Assembly: GCA_018644785.1 (NCBI GenBank) | Contig: JABGPV010000184.1 | Coordinates: 1-10,145 of the forward strand | Origin: Deltaproteobacteria bacterium | GTDB lineage: Bacteria; Desulfobacterota; DSM-4660; Desulfatiglandales; Desulfatiglandaceae | Direction of reading: 5' to 3' | DNA length: 10,145 bases | In this document: piece by piece, positions 1 through 10,145 of the stretch | Layout of the letters: the number at the start of each line of letters is the position of its first letter | Position numbering within the stretch: the first letter of the stretch is position 1 | Position numbers and translations under genes: made by a program | The notes under the pieces: model-generated | Database searches by the model: none | The model's input: only the letters and a program-made list of their open reading frames with translations | What the model was told of the DNA's origin: nothing

Positions 1-488
1 TGGCCGAGTTCAGTTACAACCGCCTCAATGACAAAGCCTGTGAAGCAATGGCATGGGCACAGTATCTGGGAGCCATGACCTATGCCATGGGTGGTGGCCT
101 TGGCATGATCCATGGGTTGGCCCATCAGATTTCTGCCATGAATGATTTACATCATGGCCTGACCAATGCTATGACCATGGTGCCTGTGGTTAAACGCAAC
201 TATGTGGCTGCACCCGATGGGTATGCCGAGTTGGCCAGGAATGCTATGAGTGTTGATACAAGCGGCATGGATCGTTTCCAGGCTGCGGAAATAGCAGTAG
301 AGAAAATTGAGTATCTCCGCAACGTAGTCGGTATTACTGATGAAGCCTGTAAACTGAGCACATACGGCCTTACTGAAGAAGATTGCAAGCACATGGCAGG
401 AAACTCAGTTAATGACCTGTGCAACGAGGGAAGTGCCAGGGATTGGACTGTAGAAGACTCATTTGAGGTCTATATGAGCATGATGTAA
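1..488 (+). CDS. Iron-containing alcohol dehydrogenase, C-terminal part (5' end outside window)
   Basis: The reading frame is open from base 3 to TAA at 486-488, giving about 161 C-terminal residues of a family usually near 380-400 aa. Group III Fe-dependent alcohol dehydrogenases oxidise alcohols to aldehydes with NAD(P) and a divalent metal in the cytoplasm. The diagnostic segment IHGLAHQISAMNDLHHG aligns with the FucO-type VHGMAHPLGAFYNTPHG. The His codons at 111-113 and 153-155 match the two C-terminal metal ligands (14 residues apart), and the His at 123-125 matches the conserved active-site His. The C-terminal helical region (SARDWTVEDSFEVYMSMM) is also typical. A mycofactocin precursor gene follows 115 bp downstream. 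Some Fe-ADHs (methanol:NDMA oxidoreductase type) are known mycofactocin-dependent nicotinoproteins, so this enzyme may use that cofactor; this is inferred from context, and the substrate is unknown. Confidence 0.88.
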   Translation, partial: AEFSYNRLNDKACEAMAWAQYLGAMTYAMGGGLGMIHGLAHQISAMNDLHHGLTNAMTMVPVVKRNYVAAPDGYAELARNAMSVDTSGMDRFQAAEIAVEKIEYLRNVVGITDEACKLSTYGLTEEDCKHMAGNSVNDLCNEGSARDWTVEDSFEVYMSMM

Positions 489-494
489 TCCCAA

Positions 495-522
495 AAGGCG
501 CGGATCTGTTGATCCGCGCCTT
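495..522 (+). terminator. Strong hairpin after the alcohol dehydrogenase gene, probable terminator
   Basis: A perfect 12-bp inverted repeat (AAGGCGCGGATC / GATCCGCGCCTT) with a TGTT tetraloop lies 6 bp after the stop codon. The position and GC-rich stem suggest transcription termination or 3' end protection of the ADH mRNA. Only two T residues close the stem and no U-tract follows (CATGTTCTG), so it is not a textbook intrinsic terminator. It could allow read-through to the mftA-like gene downstream. Confidence 0.6.
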
Positions 523-603: not shown

Positions 604-735
604 ATGGTCAATCATGAAGATAACATAATATTCCAGAATGATGAGAAAAAACCCACCCAGGAAGATGATATTTTTTGTACAGAAGAGATCGGGATTGAAG
701 AGATGGCAATTGATGGGATCTGCGGGGTTTATTAG
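604..735 (+). CDS. mftA: Mycofactocin precursor peptide (MftA-like), 43 aa
   Basis: This small ORF encodes an acidic 43-residue peptide ending in EEMAIDGICGVY before TAG at 733-735. MftA precursors are short acidic leaders with a nearly invariant C-terminal core IDGMCGVY. In the known pathway MftC, with chaperone MftB, oxidatively decarboxylates the terminal Tyr and cross-links it to Val, and MftE releases the modified Val-Tyr that becomes the redox cofactor mycofactocin. Here the Val-Tyr pair, the preceding Gly, the Cys and the Ile-Asp-Gly are all present, and only Met is replaced by Ile. ATG 604 is the only start codon in frame. A GGAGG lies at 585-589, a long 14 nt upstream, so the ribosome site is imperfect. 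A MftB-like gene lies about 1.8 kb downstream, which supports the call. The 43-aa length is normal for the family. The leader is AT-rich compared with the downstream enzyme genes. Confidence 0.82.
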   Translation: MVNHEDNIIFQNDEKKPTQEDDIFCTEEIGIEEMAIDGICGVY

Positions 736-779
736 AAAGTTTGAATTTTTGTTAGGCAATGGCGGTCCTTGGGATAAAT

Positions 780-784
780 GGAGA
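780..784 (+). promoter_or_regulatory. Ribosome binding site fixing the start of the acyl-CoA synthetase
   Basis: GGAGA at 780-784 sits 5 nt before ATG 790. The alternative ATG at 778 overlaps this site and has no good Shine-Dalgarno sequence of its own, so 790 is preferred. The 54 bp between the mftA-like gene and this start contain nothing else I recognise. Confidence 0.6.
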
Positions 785-789
785 TTCTG

Positions 790-2391
790 ATGCGAACGTC
801 CAGTGTAAACAAAAGTATTCTGACGCCGGTCGAATTCCTGACCAGGAGCGCCCTCGTCTATCCCCACAAGACAGCAGTTGTCTATGGAGAAAAACGGTAT
901 AGTTACAGGGAATTTTCCCGGAGAATCTATCGCCTGGCCAGCGCACTGCGGCAAAACGGCGTCGGCAAGGGTGACAAGGTGGCTTTCATCTGTCCGAATA
1001 TCCCGGCCATGCTCGAAGCACATTATGCCGTACCCCTGAGCGGTGCAGCCCTCGTCAGCGTTAATATCCGTCTCTCTCCGGGAGAGGTTTCATACATAAT
1101 CGATCATTCAGATGCAAAATTCGTGGTTGTCGACAGCGAGTTTGCATCAATGGTTCAACCGGGTGAACTGCCAAAAGTCAAAACCTATGTCACGGTCTGT
1201 GATGTCAGCGACTCCATCTCTCTTGAGGGTATGGAGTATGAAGCCTTCCTGTCAACCGGTTCACCCGAGCCATTTATCGCAGATATCGATTCCGAAGACC
1301 AGCTGCTTTCCATCAACTATACCAGCGGTACCACCGGTCGCCCTAAAGGCGTCATGTACCATCACCGGGGAGCGTACCTCAATGCCATCGGCGAAGTTCT
1401 TGAATCCGGTTTGACGGCGTCTTCAGTTTACCTCTGGACCCTACCCATGTTCCACTGCAACGGCTGGTGCTTCACTTGGGGCGTTACCGCCGTCGGCGCC
1501 ACCCATGTATGCCTGCGTACGGTGGTCGCTGAAGAAATTTATCGTCTGATCGAAAAGGAAGATGTATCTCACCTCTGCGCCGCCCCAACGGTACTCATTA
1601 CCATGAGCACCTGGCCGGGCGCTTCCAAAATAAAAATGAAGCGTACCCTCAAGATCATGACCGCCGGCGCCCCGCCGGCGCCCACCATTATCCGGAATAT
1701 GGAGGCTATTGGAGCCGATATTACCCATACATACGGCCTCACGGAGGTGTATGGGCCCCACAGTGTCTGCGCCTGGCAGCCTGCCTGGAATACGATCTCA
1801 GCTGATGAAAAGGCAACGATGAAATCACGGCAGGGGGTCCCCTATATTGTCACGCACTTCATGGATGTGGTAGAGCCTCTAACCATGGAACCGGTCGCCA
1901 GGGATGGTAAGACCATGGGAGAGATTGTCATGCGGGGAAACAATGTCATGACCGGTTATTACAACGACCCTGAGGCGACCGCAGTCGCATTTGAGGGCGG
2001 CTGGTTCCACAGCGGCGATCTGGCTGTCATGCACCCGGACGGCTATGTCCAGATCATGGACAGGAAAAAGGATATCATCATCAGCGGCGGTGAAAATATT
2101 TCCACGGTCGAAGTTGAAAACGCCATATACGGGCATCCTCATGTCCTGGAAGTAGCCGTCATTCCGGTACCGGACCCGAAATGGGGCGAGGTTCCAAAGG
2201 CTTTTGTCGTATCCAAACCGGGTAGCAGCCCATCGGAAGAGGATATCATTGTATTTACCAAGAAACACCTGGCCCGTTTCAAGGCACCCAAACATGTGGA
2301 ATTCGGTGAGCTGCCAAAAACCGCTACGGGTAAAATACAGAAGTTCAAACTCCGGGAAAAGGAGTGGGCGGGGAAAAAGCGGATCAATTGA
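790..2391 (+). CDS. AMP-forming acyl-CoA synthetase (fatty acid/organic acid-CoA ligase)
   Basis: The protein has 533 aa from ATG 790. Members of the ANL superfamily activate a carboxylic acid with ATP to an acyl-adenylate and transfer it to CoA. Conserved motifs occur in order: the P-loop YTSGTTGRPKG (residues 177-187), TYGLTE (314-319), FHSGDL (Asp410 binds the ribose), the hinge segment DRKKDIIISGGENIS, and the C-terminal PKTATGKIQK with catalytic Lys515. The N-terminal LTPVEFLTRSALVYPHKTA and the overall spacing resemble the short/medium-chain subgroup that includes DmdB (methylmercaptopropionate-CoA ligase) and plant AAE enzymes. The exact substrate cannot be read from the sequence. It lies between the mftA-like and mftB-like genes, probably in one transcript. 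With the alcohol dehydrogenase and the aldehyde oxidoreductase it could form an alcohol-to-acyl-CoA route (inference). No truncation or missing motif is seen. Confidence 0.92.
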   Translation: MRTSSVNKSILTPVEFLTRSALVYPHKTAVVYGEKRYSYREFSRRIYRLASALRQNGVGKGDKVAFICPNIPAMLEAHYAVPLSGAALVSVNIRLSPGEVSYIIDHSDAKFVVVDSEFASMVQPGELPKVKTYVTVCDVSDSISLEGMEYEAFLSTGSPEPFIADIDSEDQLLSINYTSGTTGRPKGVMYHHRGAYLNAIGEVLESGLTASSVYLWTLPMFHCNGWCFTWGVTAVGATHVCLRTVVAEEIYRLIEKEDVSHLCAAPTVLITMSTWPGASKIKMKRTLKIMTAGAPPAPTIIRNMEAIGADITHTYGLTEVYGPHSVCAWQPAWNTISADEKATMKSRQGVPYIVTHFMDVVEPLTMEPVARDGKTMGEIVMRGNNVMTGYYNDPEATAVAFEGGWFHSGDLAVMHPDGYVQIMDRKKDIIISGGENISTVEVENAIYGHPHVLEVAVIPVPDPKWGEVPKAFVVSKPGSSPSEEDIIVFTKKHLARFKAPKHVEFGELPKTATGKIQKFKLREKEWAGKKRIN

Positions 2392-2510: not shown

Positions 2511-2786
2511 ATGGAGCCAACAGAAGATCCAAGATATATTTTGTCATCTGGAACACAGGTCAGAGAAGAGGATTTTGGACTCCTTTTCTATACAATGAAT
2601 GGGCCCCGTCTCTATTTTTTGTCGTCCGGTCCATTGCTTGATACTTCATTCTTTAGGGGTGAAATTACTCTTGACCTGTGGATACGATTGAAAAAGGAGG
2701 GGAGATCTGCACCAAAAAAAGAGATAAATAGTATAAAAAAAACCTTGGATCAGCTGAGAGCGAAAGGGGTCATCATTGAGTGCTAA
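2511..2786 (+). CDS. mftB: Mycofactocin chaperone MftB-like RRE protein, 91 aa
   Basis: The 91-aa product has the layout of MftB, the small RiPP-recognition-element (PqqD-like) protein that binds the MftA leader and presents it to the radical SAM enzyme MftC. The N-terminal half, with DPRYILSSGTQVREEDFG then LLFYTMNGPRLYFLSSG (residues 6-40), matches the family pattern of a tyrosine/leucine start, a V-R-x-E-x-F-G step and a two-strand segment ending in Y/F-L. The C-terminal half is charged and probably helical, ending in LDQLRAKGVIIEC, as in the winged-helix part of RRE domains. It follows the acyl-CoA synthetase gene by 119 bp and the mftA-like gene by about 1.8 kb. No mftC follows; the next gene is the aldehyde oxidoreductase. 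The stretch is noticeably more AT-rich than the enzyme genes on either side. I recognise it by pattern only, so a profile search would be decisive. Confidence 0.72.
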   Translation: MEPTEDPRYILSSGTQVREEDFGLLFYTMNGPRLYFLSSGPLLDTSFFRGEITLDLWIRLKKEGRSAPKKEINSIKKTLDQLRAKGVIIEC

Positions 2787-2946
2787 TATGGCCAGGGCGG
2801 GGCTTCGGGCCCGGTGAACGTCACCTGGGGAAATTACGCTGATGCGTAGATGTCCTTGGGGACGATGAGCTGGCCTTGACTGCTGTTTCTGAGACAACGG
2901 CCCTCACCACAAACGCAAATATCCCGCTAGATCGGCGGCGACAAAA

Positions 2947-3012: not shown

Positions 3013-4755
3013 ATGGACAAAATTGTTCGAATTAACATGGGTGGGGAGGCAGGACCTAAGGTGAGCACCGGGCCTCTGGGGGATTATGCCGGTTTTGGTG
3101 GCCGTGCCATGACATCGGCGATCGTTTCAAAGGAGGTTCCCCCGCTATGTCATCCTCTGGGAGCAGATAACAAGTTGATCATAGCCCCCGGAATGTTGAG
3201 CGGATCTGTTGCGGCTATGTCCGGACGTATTTCCGTGGGGTGTAAGAGCCCGCTGACCGGCGGTATCAAAGAAGCCAATTCGGGCGGCCAGCCGTCGCAG
3301 ATGCTGGGCCGGCTGGGTTATGCCGCCATCGTGCTTGAGGGAAAACCAAAGGACGACACACTTTACAAAGTTTTCATCAATTCGGATGGTGTTCAGATCA
3401 CTCCGGACAACAGCCTAAAGATGCTCGGCAATTACGACCTGGTGGCCAAAATGAATGCGGAATACGGTGACAAGATCGCCTGCATCTCCATCGGCCAGGC
3501 CGGTGAACAGAAGCTGTCCGCCGCATCGATTGCCTTTACAGACATGGAACAACGGCCCACACGTCACGCCGGCCGCGGGGGTGTCGGCGCCGTGATGGGC
3601 GCCAAGGGCGTTAAGGTCATTATAGTGGATGACGCCGGTATGTCAAAACGCTCACCGGGAAACCCGGAAAAGTTCAAAGAAGCAAACAAAGCGTTTGTGG
3701 CCGGACTGAAGAAACATCCGGTGACCGGCGAAGGACTCCCGGCTTACGGAACCAACGTCTTGACCAACGTATTGAACGAAGCCGGCGGATATCCCACCCG
3801 AAACTTTTCATCCGGCCAATTTGAAGGTGCTTCCAAGATCAGCGGCGAAGCCCAGGCCGAAATGGAAAACGCCAGGGGCGGGGAAGGGTCTGCCACCCAC
3901 GGCTGCCATAAGGGCTGTGTTATCCGCTGCTCCGGAACCTTTTATGACAAGGACGGAAAATTTGTGACCAAACAGGTTGAATACGAAACCATCTGGGCCC
4001 ATGGCGGAAACTGCGGCATCGACGACCTGGACGCCATCGCAAAGTTAGACCGAATGGACGATGACTTCGGGGTGGACACCATTGACATGGGCGTCACCAT
4101 CGGTGTGGCCATGGAAGGGGGGCTGGCGAACTTCGGTGATGCCGAAGCAGCCATCAACCTGGTCAAGGAAGTGGGCGCGGGAACACCCCTTGGGAAAATA
4201 CTGGGCAGTGGTGCGGCTGTCACCGGACAGGTTCTCGGCGTGGAACGGGTACCGGTTGTCAAAAAACAGGCGCTTCCGGCCTATGATCCCAGAGCAGTTC
4301 AGGGGATCGGTGTGACCTATGCCACGACCCCAATGGGTGCGGATCACACAGCCGGGTATGCCGTGGCCACCAACATCCTCGGTGTGGGCGGCAGTGTGGA
4401 TCCTTTGAAACCCGAAGGGCAGGTCGAGCTGTCCAGGAATCTGCAAATTGCAACAGCCGCCATTGACGCCACGGGCATGTGCCTGTTCATCGCCTTTGCG
4501 ATTCTGGACCAACCAGACACTTTTCAGGCCCTGGTCGATCTGGTCGGTGGCTTTCTTGGTGCGGACATGACGGCGGATGACGTCACGGAACTCGGCAAAA
4601 ACATCCTCAAGATGGAAAGGGATTTCAACAAACGAGCCGGTTTTACCAACAAAGACGATCGGTTGCCCGCGTTTTTCAAGGAAGAGGCATTACCGCCTCA
4701 CAATGTGACCTTCGGGGTGACGGACGAGGAGTTGGATCAGGTCTTTAACTTTTAA
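3013..4755 (+). CDS. Aldehyde:ferredoxin oxidoreductase, tungsten-pterin type
   Basis: The 580-aa product is close to the usual size (about 600 aa) of AOR-family enzymes, which oxidise aldehydes to carboxylic acids in the cytoplasm with a tungsten bis-pyranopterin and one [4Fe-4S] cluster, passing electrons to ferredoxin. The N-terminal pterin-binding domain is clear (SGRISVGCKSPLTGG near residues 70-84, HAGRGGVGAVMGAKG near 190-205). Cluster cysteines are Cys298, Cys302 and Cys306 in HGCHKGCVIRC, plus Cys490 in DATGMCLF, the usual distal D-x-x-G-x-C site. His445 in GADHTAGY matches the conserved active-site region. The first cysteine spacing is C-x3-C-x3-C rather than the C-x2-C-x3-C of the founding archaeal enzyme; I believe this is typical of a bacterial subgroup but cannot confirm it here. 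It is preceded by a long leader and followed by a terminator, so it is probably its own transcription unit. Substrate is unknown; context suggests the aldehyde made by the upstream alcohol dehydrogenase. Confidence 0.92.
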   Translation: MDKIVRINMGGEAGPKVSTGPLGDYAGFGGRAMTSAIVSKEVPPLCHPLGADNKLIIAPGMLSGSVAAMSGRISVGCKSPLTGGIKEANSGGQPSQMLGRLGYAAIVLEGKPKDDTLYKVFINSDGVQITPDNSLKMLGNYDLVAKMNAEYGDKIACISIGQAGEQKLSAASIAFTDMEQRPTRHAGRGGVGAVMGAKGVKVIIVDDAGMSKRSPGNPEKFKEANKAFVAGLKKHPVTGEGLPAYGTNVLTNVLNEAGGYPTRNFSSGQFEGASKISGEAQAEMENARGGEGSATHGCHKGCVIRCSGTFYDKDGKFVTKQVEYETIWAHGGNCGIDDLDAIAKLDRMDDDFGVDTIDMGVTIGVAMEGGLANFGDAEAAINLVKEVGAGTPLGKILGSGAAVTGQVLGVERVPVVKKQALPAYDPRAVQGIGVTYATTPMGADHTAGYAVATNILGVGGSVDPLKPEGQVELSRNLQIATAAIDATGMCLFIAFAILDQPDTFQALVDLVGGFLGADMTADDVTELGKNILKMERDFNKRAGFTNKDDRLPAFFKEEALPPHNVTFGVTDEELDQVFNF

Positions 4756-5140: not shown

Positions 5141-5752
5141 ATGATAAAAACAAGCTTGGCGGCAGAATTCCTGTTTGACACAATGGATTCGGGTGTCGTG
5201 GCGTTTTCATCCATTTTGCAGGCAGGTTTCAAAGTCAATGTCCACACCGGTGTCAGCATCAGGGATCTGCTCTGCAATCAGTTTGATGTGAATCCTGACT
5301 ATGTGGAAGACCGAATCCGAACGGCCTTCCTGAACGGAAAGCCGGTTGACGATTTTTCAACGGCCATCATGGAAAGCGGCGCCACGCTGGCGCTTTCGGC
5401 TGCCATGCCGGGACTGGTCGGCGCAACCTTTCGCAAGGGTGGAGACCTGGCCGTCTTTCGCGGCACGATCACGCACCGGCGGGGGGATACGATCGTCGAG
5501 GAACGTCTAGGAGTGGTATCCATCAAGTTGTTCAATCTTCTGGCCAAAGAAATCGGCTTAACCTTTCTCAAGCGTGGTGTTATGGTCGACTCGGATACGG
5601 CGAGGTGGTTTTTTTCCGATCCACCGGATGCATTTCGAAGGGGTTGCAAAAGCATCCTGGTAAATGGAGAGGATATTCATATGGACCAACTATCTCAAAC
5701 GATTACATCGGGGTCGGAGGGTTTTGTCGAGCTTCGGCTGATGGCTTCATAA
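5141..5752 (+). CDS. Conserved-looking hypothetical protein, 203 aa
   Basis: I do not recognise this family with certainty. ATG 5141 is chosen over the upstream ATG 5114 because AGGAG (5129-5133) lies 7 nt before it. No signal peptide or membrane segment is evident. Residues about 30-100 contain a pattern suggestive of a ubiquitin-like beta-grasp domain: a helix, then AFLNGKPVDDFSTAIMESGATLALS, comparable with the NGE-x-V-x-D...DGD-x-V-x-L part of MoaD/ThiS proteins. The following segment AAMPGLVGATFRKGG is rich in Gly. The C-terminal half is mixed alpha/beta with a second VNGEDI segment. It follows the MoaD-like gene by 43 bp and precedes the FIST gene by 53 bp, so it may act with either the sulfur carrier or the sensor group. 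The beta-grasp idea is speculative. Confidence 0.7.
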   Translation: MIKTSLAAEFLFDTMDSGVVAFSSILQAGFKVNVHTGVSIRDLLCNQFDVNPDYVEDRIRTAFLNGKPVDDFSTAIMESGATLALSAAMPGLVGATFRKGGDLAVFRGTITHRRGDTIVEERLGVVSIKLFNLLAKEIGLTFLKRGVMVDSDTARWFFSDPPDAFRRGCKSILVNGEDIHMDQLSQTITSGSEGFVELRLMAS

Positions 5753-5805
5753 AACATTTTTTCTTCAAATACCCATCTAAGAGCTTTTCGGAAAGCGTCC
5801 AGACT

Positions 5806-6966
5806 ATGTTCAAGGCAGCGACAGTTCAATTAAAGGCGCCTTTTTCGGAGAGCAAGGGGCGACGTTTGGGAGAGGGTCTGATCGGTAAATTAGACCAAGA
5901 ACCCCATGTATGCTGGCTTTTTTGCTCGGCCCAAAAGGGTGTAAAGAGCCTCTTGAAAGGCGTCAATGATGTTGTGAAAACCGATAACCTGATCGGTTGT
6001 ACCACAGACGGCGAGGTATCCAATGAAGGTTTCAGCAGTGAGTCGGCGGTCCTGGTCGGGATCGTTACCGATCGTATTGATTTTCATCTTTCGGTTGTAG
6101 AGAATCTCTCCCAAGGCTGTGAGGGCGCCGGCCGCAAACTGGCGCAGGGCCTACCGAAATCCACCCGATACCTTCAGCTGTTTTCAGACGGCATTACCAG
6201 CAATGGCTGTGCCATACTGAGAGGCATTTCGTCGGTTTTAGGTGAAGAAATCCCGGTTTCGGGCGGCACGGCCGGAGATGATGGTCGATTTGTGCGGACA
6301 TGGCAATTTGCCGGCAGGAAGATGCTGACGGATGCCGCTGTTGCGTTAGGTTTTTCGGGTGATTTTCAGCTGGGCACCGGCGTTCGAAGTGGCTGGACGC
6401 CGACCGGCCTGACAAAAACGGCTACGAGTGCTTCAGGGAACACGCTGTTTGAACTCAACGGGGAGCCGGCTCTGAAAGTATATGAACGTTTTTTGGGAAA
6501 ATATGCCCATAAGCTGCCCTCGATCGGCGTCGAATATCCCCTGGGGCTTGTCGGGCCAGCCGGAGATATTGGAAAAACCAATTATTTCCTGTTGCGCGCC
6601 ACCATGTCGGTGAACCGGGAAGAAGGTTCCATCACTTTTGCGGGAGAGATACCTGAAGGCGCCGAGGTGAGTCTGACTTGTGGAGATATTGCCTCTGTCT
6701 TGCACGCTTCAGAAGAAGCCGCCCAATTGGCCATATCGGATCTGGGAGATGCCACGGTCGCCATGATTTTCTGTTATTCCTGCATGGCCCGGAAAATCGT
6801 TCTGGGCAGCCGCACGCGGGAGGAAATCGAGCTGATACGGCAGAAGATCGGTCCCAACCTACCGATTGCGGGGTTTTACTCTTACGGTGAATACTCGCCC
6901 ATGAGATGTGGCAGTACCAGTTATCTTCATAATGAAACGACTACCGTATCCGTGATCGGGTTCTAG
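5806..6966 (+). CDS. FIST-domain (FIST_N + FIST_C) sensor protein
   Basis: The 386-aa product from ATG 5806 has the usual size of stand-alone FIST proteins, predicted small-ligand sensors. Recognisable segments are LIGCTTDGEVSNEGF near residues 62-77 (FIST_N glycine/threonine motif), VSGGTAGDDGRF near the end of FIST_N, and IAGFYSYGEYSPM near the C-terminus (FIST_C signature). No membrane helices or signal peptide are seen. The frame extends upstream to ATG 5605, but that part overlaps the preceding gene and is not FIST-like. ATG 5806 has only a poor ribosome site, so the start is uncertain by a few codons. The next gene, a hybrid kinase, starts 2 nt after the stop. FIST proteins of the NosP type bind haem and nitric oxide and control a co-encoded histidine kinase; the pairing here fits that theme, but I cannot identify a haem ligand. 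Confidence 0.88.
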   Translation: MFKAATVQLKAPFSESKGRRLGEGLIGKLDQEPHVCWLFCSAQKGVKSLLKGVNDVVKTDNLIGCTTDGEVSNEGFSSESAVLVGIVTDRIDFHLSVVENLSQGCEGAGRKLAQGLPKSTRYLQLFSDGITSNGCAILRGISSVLGEEIPVSGGTAGDDGRFVRTWQFAGRKMLTDAAVALGFSGDFQLGTGVRSGWTPTGLTKTATSASGNTLFELNGEPALKVYERFLGKYAHKLPSIGVEYPLGLVGPAGDIGKTNYFLLRATMSVNREEGSITFAGEIPEGAEVSLTCGDIASVLHASEEAAQLAISDLGDATVAMIFCYSCMARKIVLGSRTREEIELIRQKIGPNLPIAGFYSYGEYSPMRCGSTSYLHNETTTVSVIGF

Positions 6967-6968
6967 TC

Positions 6969-8972
6969 ATGAAAGAAATCAAGGGCCTCCGACTGCGGAT
7001 TAAAGAGCTTGAAAGTCTCTTGGCCCAGGCGGAACGTAGGTCTTACATCCTCACCAACCTGTTAAAGGAGGCCACCACCGAGTTCAAGCAGGCCTTGGAG
7101 CAAGTCACCACCTCCGAGGCAAACTTCCGCGCCATCATCGAAAACGCCCCCGAAGCGATCTATATTGCCGATGCCGAAACGCGCCAAATTCTGGACTGCA
7201 ATCCTTACACGACCCAATGGCTCGGCTACACGCGGTCGAAACTGTTGTCTATGAGGATAGAAGACATTCTCGATATCGGTTCCAGGGGGGTGCGGGAAAA
7301 TATCCGAAAGGCAGTTGAATACGGCTTCGTCCATGTACAGGAAAGACGTTTTCGCAAAAAATCGGGTGCATTTGTGGATGCGGAAATGACCGGAACCGTG
7401 GTGGAAATCCAGGGGCGCAAATGCTTTCTGGCTCTGGTTCGCGACATTACCGAACGCAAAACCATCGAAGAACTGTCAAGGTACAAAGAGCTCTTTGACC
7501 ATGCCATCGATCCGATAATCATCAGTCATTCCCAGGGCGCATTTCTTGAAATTAACGCCGTGGCCTGTAAGCGATTAGGTTATAGCCGCCGACGGTTGCT
7601 TAATATGTCATTCAAAAATGTCGTATCCCCGGATCAGATGGATATCCTGAGAGAAATGGGGCAGAAAATCCGATCCGGGGAAACCGTTCAGTTTGAGGTG
7701 GACATTCTGACCCGGTCCGGCGGGACCATCCCGTTCGAATTTCACTCAAGAATGATCAATTACCAGCACAAGCCAGCGGTTTTGAGCATGGCGCGTGATT
7801 TGAGCATCCGGAAACAGATGGAAAAAACCCTGATCCGTGGGGAACGGCTTTCGGCCGTCGGAGAAATGGCCAGCGGCGTTGCCCACAACTTCAACAACTT
7901 GCTGCAAGTCATCATGGGGGCCGGTGAAGCGGCGATCAGAAAACTTGAATCAGGTGAAATCAGAAAATGTCACGATGCCCTCGGCAATATTCTCGATGCA
8001 TCCCACAGAGGGGCCGATATCGTGAACAGGATTAAGGATTTCACCCTGTTGACAACCGGAGAAACGGATACGGTCCGTGTGTTTTCAATTGGTGAACTCA
8101 TCGAAGAAGCCGTGAACCTGACACGGCCGTTGTGGAAAAACCCCCTTGAAACGCGAAAATATCGTTTGAATTATTTCCGTACCCCCGGATGCCTGGTGGA
8201 AGGCAACCCCTCCGAGATCTATGAGGTCGCGGTCAATTTGATAAAAAATGCGCTGGAGGCCATGCCCCGGGGCGGGACGCTATCCATCAGTTCCGAAATT
8301 CGTGAGGGTCGGATATTTACCTCCTTCACAGACACTGGGAAAGGTGTCGTCGACGAAAACATCCAGCGCGTTTTCGAACCCTTTTTTACCACCAAAGGGC
8401 CTCAAAGCAGCGGTTTGGGGCTATCTTCCAGTTACGGGCTCGTTAAAAAGCACGGGGGCGACATACGCGTCGCGAGTGCTTTCGGCAAGGGCACAACCTT
8501 TACCATCGTTTTACCTCTGGCTGTGTCAAAAAAAAGGACAAGGGATCAACGTTTGTCCGCCCAGGAGTTCAAAACAGATAACTGCCTTCGCTTTCTGATG
8601 ATTGACGATGAACCCAATATCCTCAAAATGATGGAGCTCTGGTTCGAGGATTCGGAGGTGGAGTTGTATACAGCCAGTACGGCCGAAAAAGGTCTGCAGA
8701 CCATTCGCCAAGAGCGGTTCGATGTTATTCTGTGTGATTTCGGCATGGACGATATGAACGGTCTGGAAGTGGGAAAGGCGCATCTAGATTTTTGTCGGAT
8801 CGCGGGCATTCCCAAAACACCTTTTATGCTTTTGACCGGTCTGGATACCCAATTGGACGCCGAGACGTTAAGGGTAGTGGGTGTCGATCGGGTGGTTAAA
8901 AAACCGATTCCTGCCGATAAACTGTTTCATATTATCCAGGAAATGGCTGCCGCATCGGTCAATGCTATATGA
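6969..8972 (+). CDS. Hybrid sensor histidine kinase: coiled coil-PAS-PAS-HisKA-HATPase-REC
   Basis: The 667-aa soluble kinase starts with a coiled coil (residues 1-48), followed by two PAS domains (about 50-163 and 170-285), a HisKA domain with phospho-acceptor His306 in GVAHNFNNLL, an HATPase domain with N-box NLIKNALE (Asn427), G1 DTGKG (455-459), F-box FEPFFTTK (469-476) and G2 GLGL (482-485), and a C-terminal receiver domain. In the receiver, the acidic pair is Asp546/Asp547, the phospho-acceptor is Asp590, and the conserved Thr623 and Lys645 are present. All catalytic residues are there, so it should autophosphorylate and pass phosphate to its own receiver. The residue after His306 is Asn rather than the common Asp/Glu. 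No transmembrane segment is seen, so signals are cytoplasmic, possibly delivered by the FIST protein encoded 2 nt upstream. It has no DNA-binding output, so another phosphotransfer partner is expected. Confidence 0.95.
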   Translation: MKEIKGLRLRIKELESLLAQAERRSYILTNLLKEATTEFKQALEQVTTSEANFRAIIENAPEAIYIADAETRQILDCNPYTTQWLGYTRSKLLSMRIEDILDIGSRGVRENIRKAVEYGFVHVQERRFRKKSGAFVDAEMTGTVVEIQGRKCFLALVRDITERKTIEELSRYKELFDHAIDPIIISHSQGAFLEINAVACKRLGYSRRRLLNMSFKNVVSPDQMDILREMGQKIRSGETVQFEVDILTRSGGTIPFEFHSRMINYQHKPAVLSMARDLSIRKQMEKTLIRGERLSAVGEMASGVAHNFNNLLQVIMGAGEAAIRKLESGEIRKCHDALGNILDASHRGADIVNRIKDFTLLTTGETDTVRVFSIGELIEEAVNLTRPLWKNPLETRKYRLNYFRTPGCLVEGNPSEIYEVAVNLIKNALEAMPRGGTLSISSEIREGRIFTSFTDTGKGVVDENIQRVFEPFFTTKGPQSSGLGLSSSYGLVKKHGGDIRVASAFGKGTTFTIVLPLAVSKKRTRDQRLSAQEFKTDNCLRFLMIDDEPNILKMMELWFEDSEVELYTASTAEKGLQTIRQERFDVILCDFGMDDMNGLEVGKAHLDFCRIAGIPKTPFMLLTGLDTQLDAETLRVVGVDRVVKKPIPADKLFHIIQEMAAASVNAI

Positions 8973-9556
8973 CAAGGCTACAGCAGCAAATTCGATTCAT
9001 TCTCGAGGCCGATAAATTAAAACAGGTTATTCGCTGGACCCTTTTAACCGACGGTTCAAGGCGGGAAAACGCTGCGGAACATTCATGGCAATTGGCCATC
9101 ATGGCGATGGTACTGATGGAGCATCATTGCCCGAGCCAATTGAACCTTCTGCGCGTGCTCCAAATGCTTTTGGTACATGATCTTGTGGAGATTGATGCAG
9201 GCGATGTTCACTTTTGTGATACAGCGCAACGGCGCAAGCAAATTGACAAGGAGGCTAAAGCCGCTGATCGCCTGTTCAATTTGCTGCCCCATGACCAGGC
9301 ACGAATCCTCCTTCGCCTGTGGCATGAATTTGAAAACCAAGAATCCGAAGAAGCGATATTCGCGCACATTTTAGATCGCTTTCAGCCGATTTTGCATGGC
9401 TATGTCACTGAGGGGCGGACATGGCGGGAGAACGGCGTCTCACATCATCATCTGTTATCGATCATTGAGCCCATGAAAACGTCAGCCCCCGAAATACACG
9501 ACCATGCAGCCACTTTGATCGCAGATGCGGTTGCCAAAGGGTTCCTGCCGAAATAG
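8969..9556 (+). CDS. HD-domain phosphohydrolase (YfbR / 5'-deoxynucleotidase-like)
   Basis: The 195-aa product belongs to the HD_3-type group of metal-dependent phosphohydrolases, many of which act on nucleoside 5'-monophosphates. Metal-binding residues appear in order: His38 in AAEHSWQLA, the His70-Asp71 pair in LLVHDLVEIDAGD, and Asp136 in LDRFQPILHGY. Length matches the family (about 190-200 aa). The start ATG overlaps the kinase stop as ATGA (8969-8972), indicating translational coupling. The true substrate is not deducible. Given the coupling it may act in nucleotide signalling with the kinase, but such HD genes also occur as housekeeping hitchhikers. Confidence 0.9.
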   Translation: MTRLQQQIRFILEADKLKQVIRWTLLTDGSRRENAAEHSWQLAIMAMVLMEHHCPSQLNLLRVLQMLLVHDLVEIDAGDVHFCDTAQRRKQIDKEAKAADRLFNLLPHDQARILLRLWHEFENQESEEAIFAHILDRFQPILHGYVTEGRTWRENGVSHHHLLSIIEPMKTSAPEIHDHAATLIADAVAKGFLPK

Positions 9557-9593: not shown

Positions 9594-10145
9594 ATGATCC
9601 GAATTCTGGGTATCAATAGTTCGGCGCGAACCAAAGGGAGCCACGCCCTTTACGAATCCCATTGCGCCGTGATGTTGCAGGGTCTGATGGATACCATTCG
9701 GGAATCTTGTAACGATTGTCACACCGAAATGATCCATTTAAGTCAAATGAATATCCATCCCTGCCGAGCGTGTTTCTCTGATATGGAAACCAGGTGCCAC
9801 TATCTATGCGACTGCTTTGACGACGATTTCAGCATGGTCGCCAAGAAGATGATCGAAGCAGACGGGATTTTTTTTGCATCCCCAACTTATATGTTTGGTA
9901 TGGCCGGCATTTTAAAGCAATTTCTTGAGCGCTGGATCAGCTTCAAGGCGCCACCCGTTCCCCGTGAAAAAGTGACCAAATCGCTGGACGAATGCTTTGA
10001 TCTGGTGGAGCAGATGGCAGACGGCACATTAAAGGCCTCCAACCCTCTTCAGGGCAAAGTGGGAGGTATCGTAGTGGCTGGAAGCGAACTGGGCCAAGAC
10101 AACGTTGCAAAGGAAATAATGCTGATTCTAAATCTTTATGGATTT
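9594..10145 (+). CDS. Flavodoxin-fold NAD(P)H-dependent FMN reductase, cysteine-rich (3' end outside window)
   Basis: The frame is open from ATG 9594 to the window edge, 184 codons. AGGGT at 9581-9585 lies 8 nt before the ATG, and the gene begins 37 bp after the HD gene. The N-terminal ILGINSSARTKGSHA is the FMN phosphate-binding loop of the NADPH-dependent FMN reductase / iron-sulfur flavoprotein family. The segment ADGIFFASPTYMFGMAGILKQFLER is the family's flavin-ring loop. Cys57, Cys60, Cys68, Cys72 and Cys74 cluster in residues 57-74 and could carry an iron-sulfur centre, as in Isf-type flavoproteins, though the spacing is not the compact form I know. It probably mediates electron transfer or redox defence in an anaerobe. 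Product specificity is unknown. Confidence 0.87.
   Translation, partial: MIRILGINSSARTKGSHALYESHCAVMLQGLMDTIRESCNDCHTEMIHLSQMNIHPCRACFSDMETRCHYLCDCFDDDFSMVAKKMIEADGIFFASPTYMFGMAGILKQFLERWISFKAPPVPREKVTKSLDECFDLVEQMADGTLKASNPLQGKVGGIVVAGSELGQDNVAKEIMLILNLYGF

What the first reader, a model, noticed from the sequence alone, without database searches (positions are those of the whole stretch)
604..735. Short mycofactocin precursor gene (MftA-like) in a Deltaproteobacterium-like setting
The 43-residue peptide ends in IDGICGVY, almost identical to the MftA core IDGMCGVY, with the reactive Val-Tyr at the extreme C-terminus and an acidic leader. Mycofactocin is best known from Actinobacteria and is sporadic elsewhere. 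Such a small gene is easily left unannotated. Its presence implies a ribosomally made redox cofactor in this organism.
Basis: partly seen in the sequence, partly recalled or inferred. Interest (0 to 1): 0.9.

Follow-up and report, generated by a model that had tools for sequence, protein, structure and literature searches.

The report
Mycofactocin precursor beside broken maturase gene
A bacterium akin to sulfate reducers carries the tiny gene for the precursor of the redox cofactor mycofactocin and its partner protein, but the gene for the enzyme that starts turning the precursor into the cofactor survives here only as a short broken stump, so this locus cannot make the cofactor by itself.

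Summary
In detail: window 604-735 encodes a 43-residue MftA (TIGR03969 27.3 bits, cutoff 25; NF040489 30.4, cutoff 30). Its IDGICGVY end is shared by 7 of 7 homologues and is the common form in the 29 comparison loci. Mycofactocin in Deltaproteobacteria is in print since 2011 (PMC3023750, passages).

MftB is here too (2511-2786), but an acyl-CoA ligase lies between the two, and mftC survives only as about 54 nt after mftB (2788-2842), frame broken twice. In 29 of 29 comparison loci mftC follows mftB. A second stump, probably of nickel-pincer gene larE, abuts it (2849-2902). The AOR - FIST - kinase unit downstream matches the tail of mycofactocin clusters with mftF and lar genes before it (L063, L121). 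So this is a mycofactocin locus with internal deletions: real MftA and MftB, no maturase in cis. Whether MftC exists elsewhere is untestable (no genome held). AOR genes are enriched beside mycofactocin clusters in this group (13 of 25 loci, about 1 expected); my searches found no paper on that.

The parts
3..488 (+). C-terminal part of an iron-containing alcohol dehydrogenase, cut by the window edge
   Evidence: PF25137 66.5 bits; best NCBIfam lactaldehyde reductase 100 bits, NDMA_methanol 73 bits, both far under cutoff
495..522 (+). terminator-like 12-bp stem between the dehydrogenase and mftA
   Evidence: such patterns are not commoner than in shuffles: 5 found, 6.2 expected in the scanned region
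604..735 (+). mftA, mycofactocin precursor peptide, 43 aa, ends IDGICGVY
   Evidence: TIGR03969 and NF040489 over cutoff; homologues; conserved end
778..2391 (+). acyl-CoA synthetase (AMP-forming) lying between mftA and mftB
   Evidence: NF006020 732.9 bits; nearest named relatives Desulfomarina, Desulfofustis, Desulfopila
2511..2786 (+). mftB, mycofactocin chaperone (an upstream ATG at 2469 would give 105 aa)
   Evidence: TIGR03967 46.9 bits, cutoff 33; none of 37 highly conserved positions altered
2788..2842 (+). relic of the 5' end of mftC; frame broken twice, rest of the gene absent
   Evidence: blastn 92.9% over 42 nt to mftC starts of L011/L016, E 4e-10, and 81.8% over 55 nt to L007; frame-tolerant alignment scores 48-72 against shuffle maxima 32-41
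2849..2902 (+). probable relic of larE (nickel-pincer cofactor sulfur transferase), an inner piece only
   Evidence: ungapped likeness to LarE of L121 and L064, score 51 and 50, 0 of 40 shuffles reach either (one shuffle came to 49); tblastn E 0.041
3013..4755 (+). aldehyde ferredoxin oxidoreductase (AOR)
   Evidence: PF02730 187 bits, PF01314 264 bits
4861..5097 (+). MoaD/ThiS-like small sulfur carrier
   Evidence: PF14451 28.2 bits over cutoff 23
5147..5752 (+). conserved protein of unknown function found beside AOR genes
   Evidence: no Pfam/NCBIfam match; present after AOR in 14 of 20 AOR loci
5803..6966 (+). FIST-type sensor (NosP-like)
   Evidence: NF041558 97 bits, under cutoff 450; relatives in mycofactocin loci L063, L064 and in L121
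6969..8972 (+). PAS histidine kinase with receiver domain
   Evidence: 62% identical over 659 aa to the kinase of L121

Best explanation
This is a genuine mftA-mftB pair in a mycofactocin locus with internal deletions. SHOWN: MftA and MftB are intact; an acyl-CoA ligase lies between them; mftC is a short broken stump one base after the mftB stop codon; a probable larE stump abuts it; the AOR - unknown - FIST - kinase unit behind it is the unit that follows mycofactocin genes in two relatives. INFERRED: the locus once ran mftB - mftC - (mftF) - larE - larB - larC - AOR and lost most of that stretch by deletion. INFERRED, most likely: MftA and MftB are still made and serve an MftC encoded elsewhere. 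MftB would present the MftA leader, MftC would decarboxylate and cyclise the C-terminal Val-Tyr, and the product would carry electrons for alcohol oxidation; AOR and the ligase would turn the aldehyde into acid and acyl-CoA.
For: MftA and MftB profiles over cutoff. mftC after mftB in 29 of 29 comparison loci. mftC stump. larE stump: (controls LarB, MftF, MftC and the ligase within shuffles, LarC reached by 3 of 40). Downstream unit equals L063 and L121. MftB keeps all 37 positions that are at least 90% conserved outside its clade. MftA core invariant. Two MftB places in one genome do occur: G058 and G292, among 18 MftB genomes of 395. AOR beside mft loci: 13 of 25 against 0.97 expected.
Against: No mftC or mftF gene in the window; a second mftC elsewhere is unproven and untestable here. 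If the loss is recent, intact mftA and mftB prove nothing. Close MftB relatives P0009 and P0010 each alter one nearly invariant residue, and P0011 is shortened, cause unknown. The dehydrogenase is truncated and far under the cutoff of the mycofactocin-linked model. MftD is over cutoff in 1 of 24 and MftE in 0 of 24 relatives, so even a complete system here may not make the mycobacterial molecule. The mft part resembles one cluster type and the AOR-FIST-kinase part another, so a simple deletion in one ancestral cluster does not explain everything.
Confidence: 0.56

Rival explanations
1. A dying system: mycofactocin was lost recently in this lineage and mftA/mftB are leftovers without function.
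For: mftC and larE stumps; mftF missing; a ligase placed between mftA and mftB; MftB is rare in the order that holds the nearest ligases (1 of 257 genomes); conserved-site changes in P0009/P0010.
Against: mftA and mftB are intact with every highly conserved MftB position kept in the window; MftA and MftB homologues of this clade are found on several contigs.
Confidence: 0.35
2. The contig is a metagenome misassembly joining the 5' end of one mycofactocin cluster to the 3' part of another; the window may not be one molecule.
For: mftA, mftB and the mftC stump are of the type of L001-L011, while AOR-FIST-kinase is of the type of L063/L121; mftA/mftB have 38-41% GC against 48-56% for the other genes. 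Sequencing errors could account for the frame breaks, though not for the missing rest of mftC.
Against: A chimeric join does not explain two stumps, mftC and larE, in cluster order and on one strand between mftB and AOR, nor a ligase between mftA and mftB; the other long genes of the window are uninterrupted.
Confidence: 0.08
3. Chance ORF with a mycofactocin-like end.
For: None found.
Against: Profile scores over cutoff, MftB and an mftC stump beside it, homologues with the same end.
Confidence: 0.01

Closest known systems
Mycofactocin system (mftA-F), Haft 2011, PMC3023750; Deltaproteobacterial case Geobacter uraniireducens
   Same: MftA with the conserved C-terminal core; MftB; an iron-dependent dehydrogenase close by
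   Different: No mftC or mftF in cis (mftC is a stump); ligase between mftA and mftB; AOR module downstream
Clusters L006, L010, L060 found here: Zn-type alcohol dehydrogenase, AOR, then mftA-mftB-mftC, then OYE-type and EtfA-type genes (clusters 2-5; names through representatives, the EtfA-type one under its cutoff)
   Same: MftA/MftB type; AOR in the neighbourhood
   Different: AOR lies after mftB here and before mftA there; those keep mftC and the OYE and EtfA-type genes
Second-type cluster L063 (G058) and L121 (G151): mftF, lar genes, AOR, unknown, FIST, kinase
   Same: AOR about 75% identical, followed by the same unknown protein, FIST and kinase in the same order; the larE stump of the window fits the lar genes before AOR
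   Different: MftA/MftB of another type (core VDGICGIY in L062 and L063); mftF and lar genes intact there; mftA-mftB-mftC intact in L063; L063 shows larB and larC, not larE, at that place
Herbiconiux sp. L3-i23 (passage of PMC11778925)
   Same: A published case of a mycofactocin locus with partial gene loss including mftC
   Different: There mftB, C and E are reported lost and D, F and a potential A kept; here A and B are kept

Membership tests
MftA (TIGR03969 / NF040489) | Profile score over the curated cutoff | tested here: met
   27.3 vs 25 and 30.4 vs 30 bits; PF23709 24.8 vs 27, just under
MftA (TIGR03969 / NF040489) | C-terminal core ending in Tyr, conserved in relatives | tested here: met
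   29 of 29 loci end [IV]DGICG[VI]Y; 7 of 7 homologues end IDGICGVY
Mycofactocin biosynthesis cluster | MftB (TIGR03967) | tested here: met
   46.9 vs 33 bits
Mycofactocin biosynthesis cluster | Intact radical-SAM MftC (TIGR03962) in the cluster | tested here: not met
   Only about 54 nt of mftC with broken frame at 2788-2842; 29 of 29 other loci have mftC after mftB
Mycofactocin biosynthesis cluster | Glycosyltransferase MftF (TIGR03965) in the cluster | tested here: not met
   tblastn of two MftF against the window, best E 0.23; over cutoff in 20 of 24 related genomes
Mycofactocin biosynthesis cluster | MftC and MftF anywhere in the genome | not testable with these tools
   No genome held for the window
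Mycofactocin biosynthesis cluster | MftD and MftE | tested here: not met
   No match among the scanned window genes; over cutoff in 1 of 24 and 0 of 24 relatives, best MftE 170.4 vs 172; not universal in published systems either
Mycofactocin-dependent nicotinoprotein dehydrogenase | Member of a mycofactocin-linked dehydrogenase model | tested here: inconclusive
   Only the C-terminal part lies in the window; NDMA_methanol 73 vs 625 bits
Mycofactocin | The Val-Tyr derived redox product | not testable with these tools
   Needs mass spectrometry

The most novel reading that the evidence does not exclude
A split mycofactocin system kept working without its maturase in cis, wired to an AOR and an acyl-CoA ligase: in these anaerobes mycofactocin would be the electron carrier of an alcohol-to-aldehyde-to-acyl-CoA route, with AOR as a redox partner of the pathway rather than a chance neighbour.
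Probability: 0.2. Interest if true: 0.7.

Novelty: new variant of a known kind. Interest (0 to 1): 0.42.

Why it matters
It shows that finding an MftA gene, even with a perfect MftB, does not by itself mean that a genome makes mycofactocin: the maturase can be gone. The wider comparison shows AOR genes, and in some loci nickel-pincer genes, beside mycofactocin clusters of anaerobes; this makes the role of mycofactocin outside mycobacteria, where it has mostly been studied (recalled), directly testable.

Tried and rejected
Rejected: chance ORF (profiles, homologues and MftB beside it). Rejected: 'the window's AOR subfamily is specific to mycofactocin' - 172 of 395 phylum genomes hold a match at E 1e-100 (at most three candidates scored per genome), 16 of 18 with MftB and 156 of 377 without. 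Rejected: 'the ligase belongs to mycofactocin clusters' - in 18 fetched loci (18 of 29 genomes with a match, two of the loci under 5 kb) it has no MftA, MftB, MftC or iron-dehydrogenase match nearby, and of AOR only one 27% match. Tried: extending the mftC stump beyond 2842; of four MftC sequences three scored within the shuffles and one just above its 40 shuffles, so the stump is called only to about 2842; the next stretch fits LarE better. Tried: a viral-contig scan with MftB, no relative; plasmid search with the gap, three short weak matches; Rfam, nothing at gathering scores; PDB search with the MftB profile, 8 chains at E 0.69 to 0.99, taken as chance. Tried: finding a closer genome by MftB in the order and class of G058 (5 genomes each time) and in the order of G004 (257 genomes): none but those already known. 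Not tested: dN/dS, because the nearest relatives are known here as proteins only. Dropped rows: the query MftC_L020 was translated from the wrong strand and its rows are not used; HK and FIST rows were left out of that printout; HK matches under 30% identity were left out. One of 20 MftB places (G292:C45) was not fetched; 14 were fetched and 5 lay in loci already held. The AOR probability treats loci as independent, which related operons are not.

Full report
The ORF at 604-735 gives a 43-residue peptide ending AIDGICGVY. It scores over the curated cutoffs of TIGR03969 (27.3 vs 25 bits) and of NF040489, variant-type mycofactocin precursor (30.4 vs 30), and slightly under PF23709 (24.8 vs 27). 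A search of 5.8 billion proteins gives 7 homologues, 7 of 7 ending IDGICGVY; two already bear the JGI name mycofactocin precursor. Ile in the core is ordinary: 29 of 29 comparison loci end in [IV]DGICG[VI]Y.

The surroundings change the reading. MftB lies at 2511-2786 (TIGR03967 46.9 vs 33 bits). Between mftA and mftB sits an acyl-CoA synthetase, 778-2391. Upstream is the end of an iron-containing alcohol dehydrogenase, separated from mftA by a terminator-like stem at 495-522. Downstream follow an AOR, a MoaD-like carrier, a conserved protein without family, a FIST sensor and a histidine kinase.

Comparison set. A genome-contig scan with 31 aligned MftB sequences gave 15 loci, 11 of them with titles of the Deltaproteobacteria/Thermodesulfobacteriota kind and 4 actinobacterial. 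In those 11 genomes MftC and MftA are over cutoff in 11 of 11. In the phylum of G006 (Desulfobacterota by inference from titles; the tool names none), 18 of 395 genomes hold MftB. With 14 further loci the set is 29 loci, 25 of them from 24 genomes of this group. In 29 of 29 an mftC follows within 240 nt of the MftB match. In 28 of 29 mftA lies within about 300 nt upstream of mftB; in L013 it lies about 5 kb away.

In the window that mftC is a stump. From 2788, one base after the mftB stop codon, to 2842 the sequence matches the beginning of mftC: at DNA level 92.9% over 42 nt to L011/L016 (E 4e-10), and at protein level with frame changes allowed, scores 48-72 against maxima of 32-41 in 60 shuffles for each of seven MftC sequences. 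The frame is broken twice within it and about 95% of the gene is missing. Plain tblastn of seven MftC against the window finds nothing better than E 0.11. I name no change that would restore it; intact copies exist in relatives.

A second stump abuts it. 2849-2902 reads, in one frame, like an inner piece of LarE: scores 51 and 50 against LarE of L121 and L064, reached by 0 of 40 shuffles for each, though one shuffle came to 49. The controls LarB, MftF, MftC and the ligase score within shuffles, and LarC is reached by 3 of 40. tblastn alone gives only E 0.041, so I call it probable.

The neighbours of relatives explain this. In L063 (second cluster of G058) the order is mycofactocin-coupled SDR - mftA - mftB - mftC - mftF - larB - larC - AOR - unknown - FIST - kinase, with the AOR 75.5% identical to the window's. 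In L121 (G151) it is mftF - larE - larB - larC - AOR - unknown - FIST (56%) - kinase (62%). In L064, larE, larB and larC stand between mftC and FIST. In the other 19 of 20 fetched loci with a close AOR no FIST match and no kinase match above about 32% was found; L118 ends too early to show them. So the window's 3' part is the tail of a mycofactocin cluster of that kind, and the gap between mftB and AOR holds stumps of two genes that belong there, in cluster order. Large deletions removed the rest. That history is inference. One thing does not fit a single ancestral cluster: mftA, mftB and the mftC stump are of the other type. The MftB tree groups the window with P0009 and P0010 (support 100/99), apart from L062-L064 (100/100); it rests on few columns. 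G058 carries both types, so recombination between clusters is possible; so is misassembly, though the stumps speak against it.

Are mftA and mftB still in use? The window's MftB departs from none of the 37 positions that are at least 90% conserved outside its clade. Between it and two close relatives the changes fall mostly on variable positions, though P0009 and P0010 each alter one conserved residue, and P0011 is shortened. This leans towards continued use with an MftC from elsewhere, but no genome is held for the window, so it stays open. I put in-trans use at 0.56, recent decay at 0.35 and misassembly at 0.08.

The product. Related genomes have MftF over cutoff in 20 of 24, MftD in 1 of 24 and MftE in 0 of 24, the best MftE score being 170.4 against 172. 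Haft 2011 already noted that these two are not universal (PMC3023750, section 9 read). Whether these bacteria finish the cofactor as mycobacteria do is unknown.

The AOR link. 13 of 25 loci contain an AOR where the AOR density of each genome predicts 0.97 (P 4.5e-13 if loci were independent, which related operons are not). Eleven of the 13 are at least 46% identical to the window's AOR, two (L007, L067) only about 31%. In L006 the order is alcohol dehydrogenase (TIGR03989 334 bits, under cutoff 440) - AOR - ThiS-like (under cutoff) - mftA - mftB - mftC - OYE-type (named through its representative). With the ligase this suggests alcohol to aldehyde to acid to acyl-CoA. But the AOR family is common without mycofactocin (156 of 377 genomes without MftB), and the ligase is not a usual neighbour. 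Full-text searches for mycofactocin with aldehyde ferredoxin oxidoreductase (0 papers) and with tungsten (2 papers, listing and starts of abstracts seen only) showed no paper on this link; most subscription papers are not in the library.

The host. The nearest named ligases are of Desulfomarina profundi (85%), Desulfofustis (84%) and Desulfopila aestuarii (83%); in the order of G004, where such ligases occur, MftB is in 1 of 257 genomes. The host's order is not settled.

Novelty. Mycofactocin in Deltaproteobacteria is known (Geobacter uraniireducens and Geobacter sp. M18 in PMC3023750, passages; G. pickeringii in PMC4358379, passage), and partial loss has a published parallel (PMC11778925, passages). 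New, as far as these searches reach, are the particular variant - precursor and chaperone kept, maturase a stump, ligase between them - and the AOR enrichment.

Noticed in passing
L121:1242-4178; L063:5143-7228; L064:11237-14201: Nickel-pincer cofactor genes sit inside mycofactocin clusters: larE, larB, larC in L121 and L064, larB and larC in L063; larB kin also in L065 and L069.
   Followed up: partly
window 5147-5752: A 201-residue protein with no Pfam or NCBIfam match follows AOR in 14 of 20 AOR loci: a conserved AOR partner of unknown function.
   Followed up: partly
L001 (G001, single contig of 6.8 Mb): MftA and MftC over cutoff and MftB present but no MftF over cutoff.
   Followed up: no
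24 related genomes: MftE over cutoff in 0 of 24 and MftD in 1 of 24: the end of the pathway may differ in this group.
   Followed up: partly
window 604-735 and 2511-2786: mftA and mftB have 38-41% GC against 48-56% for the other genes of the window, which hints at a separate origin.
   Followed up: no
window 8969-9556 and 9594-10145: An HD-domain protein and an NADPH-dependent FMN reductase-like protein follow the kinase.
   Followed up: no
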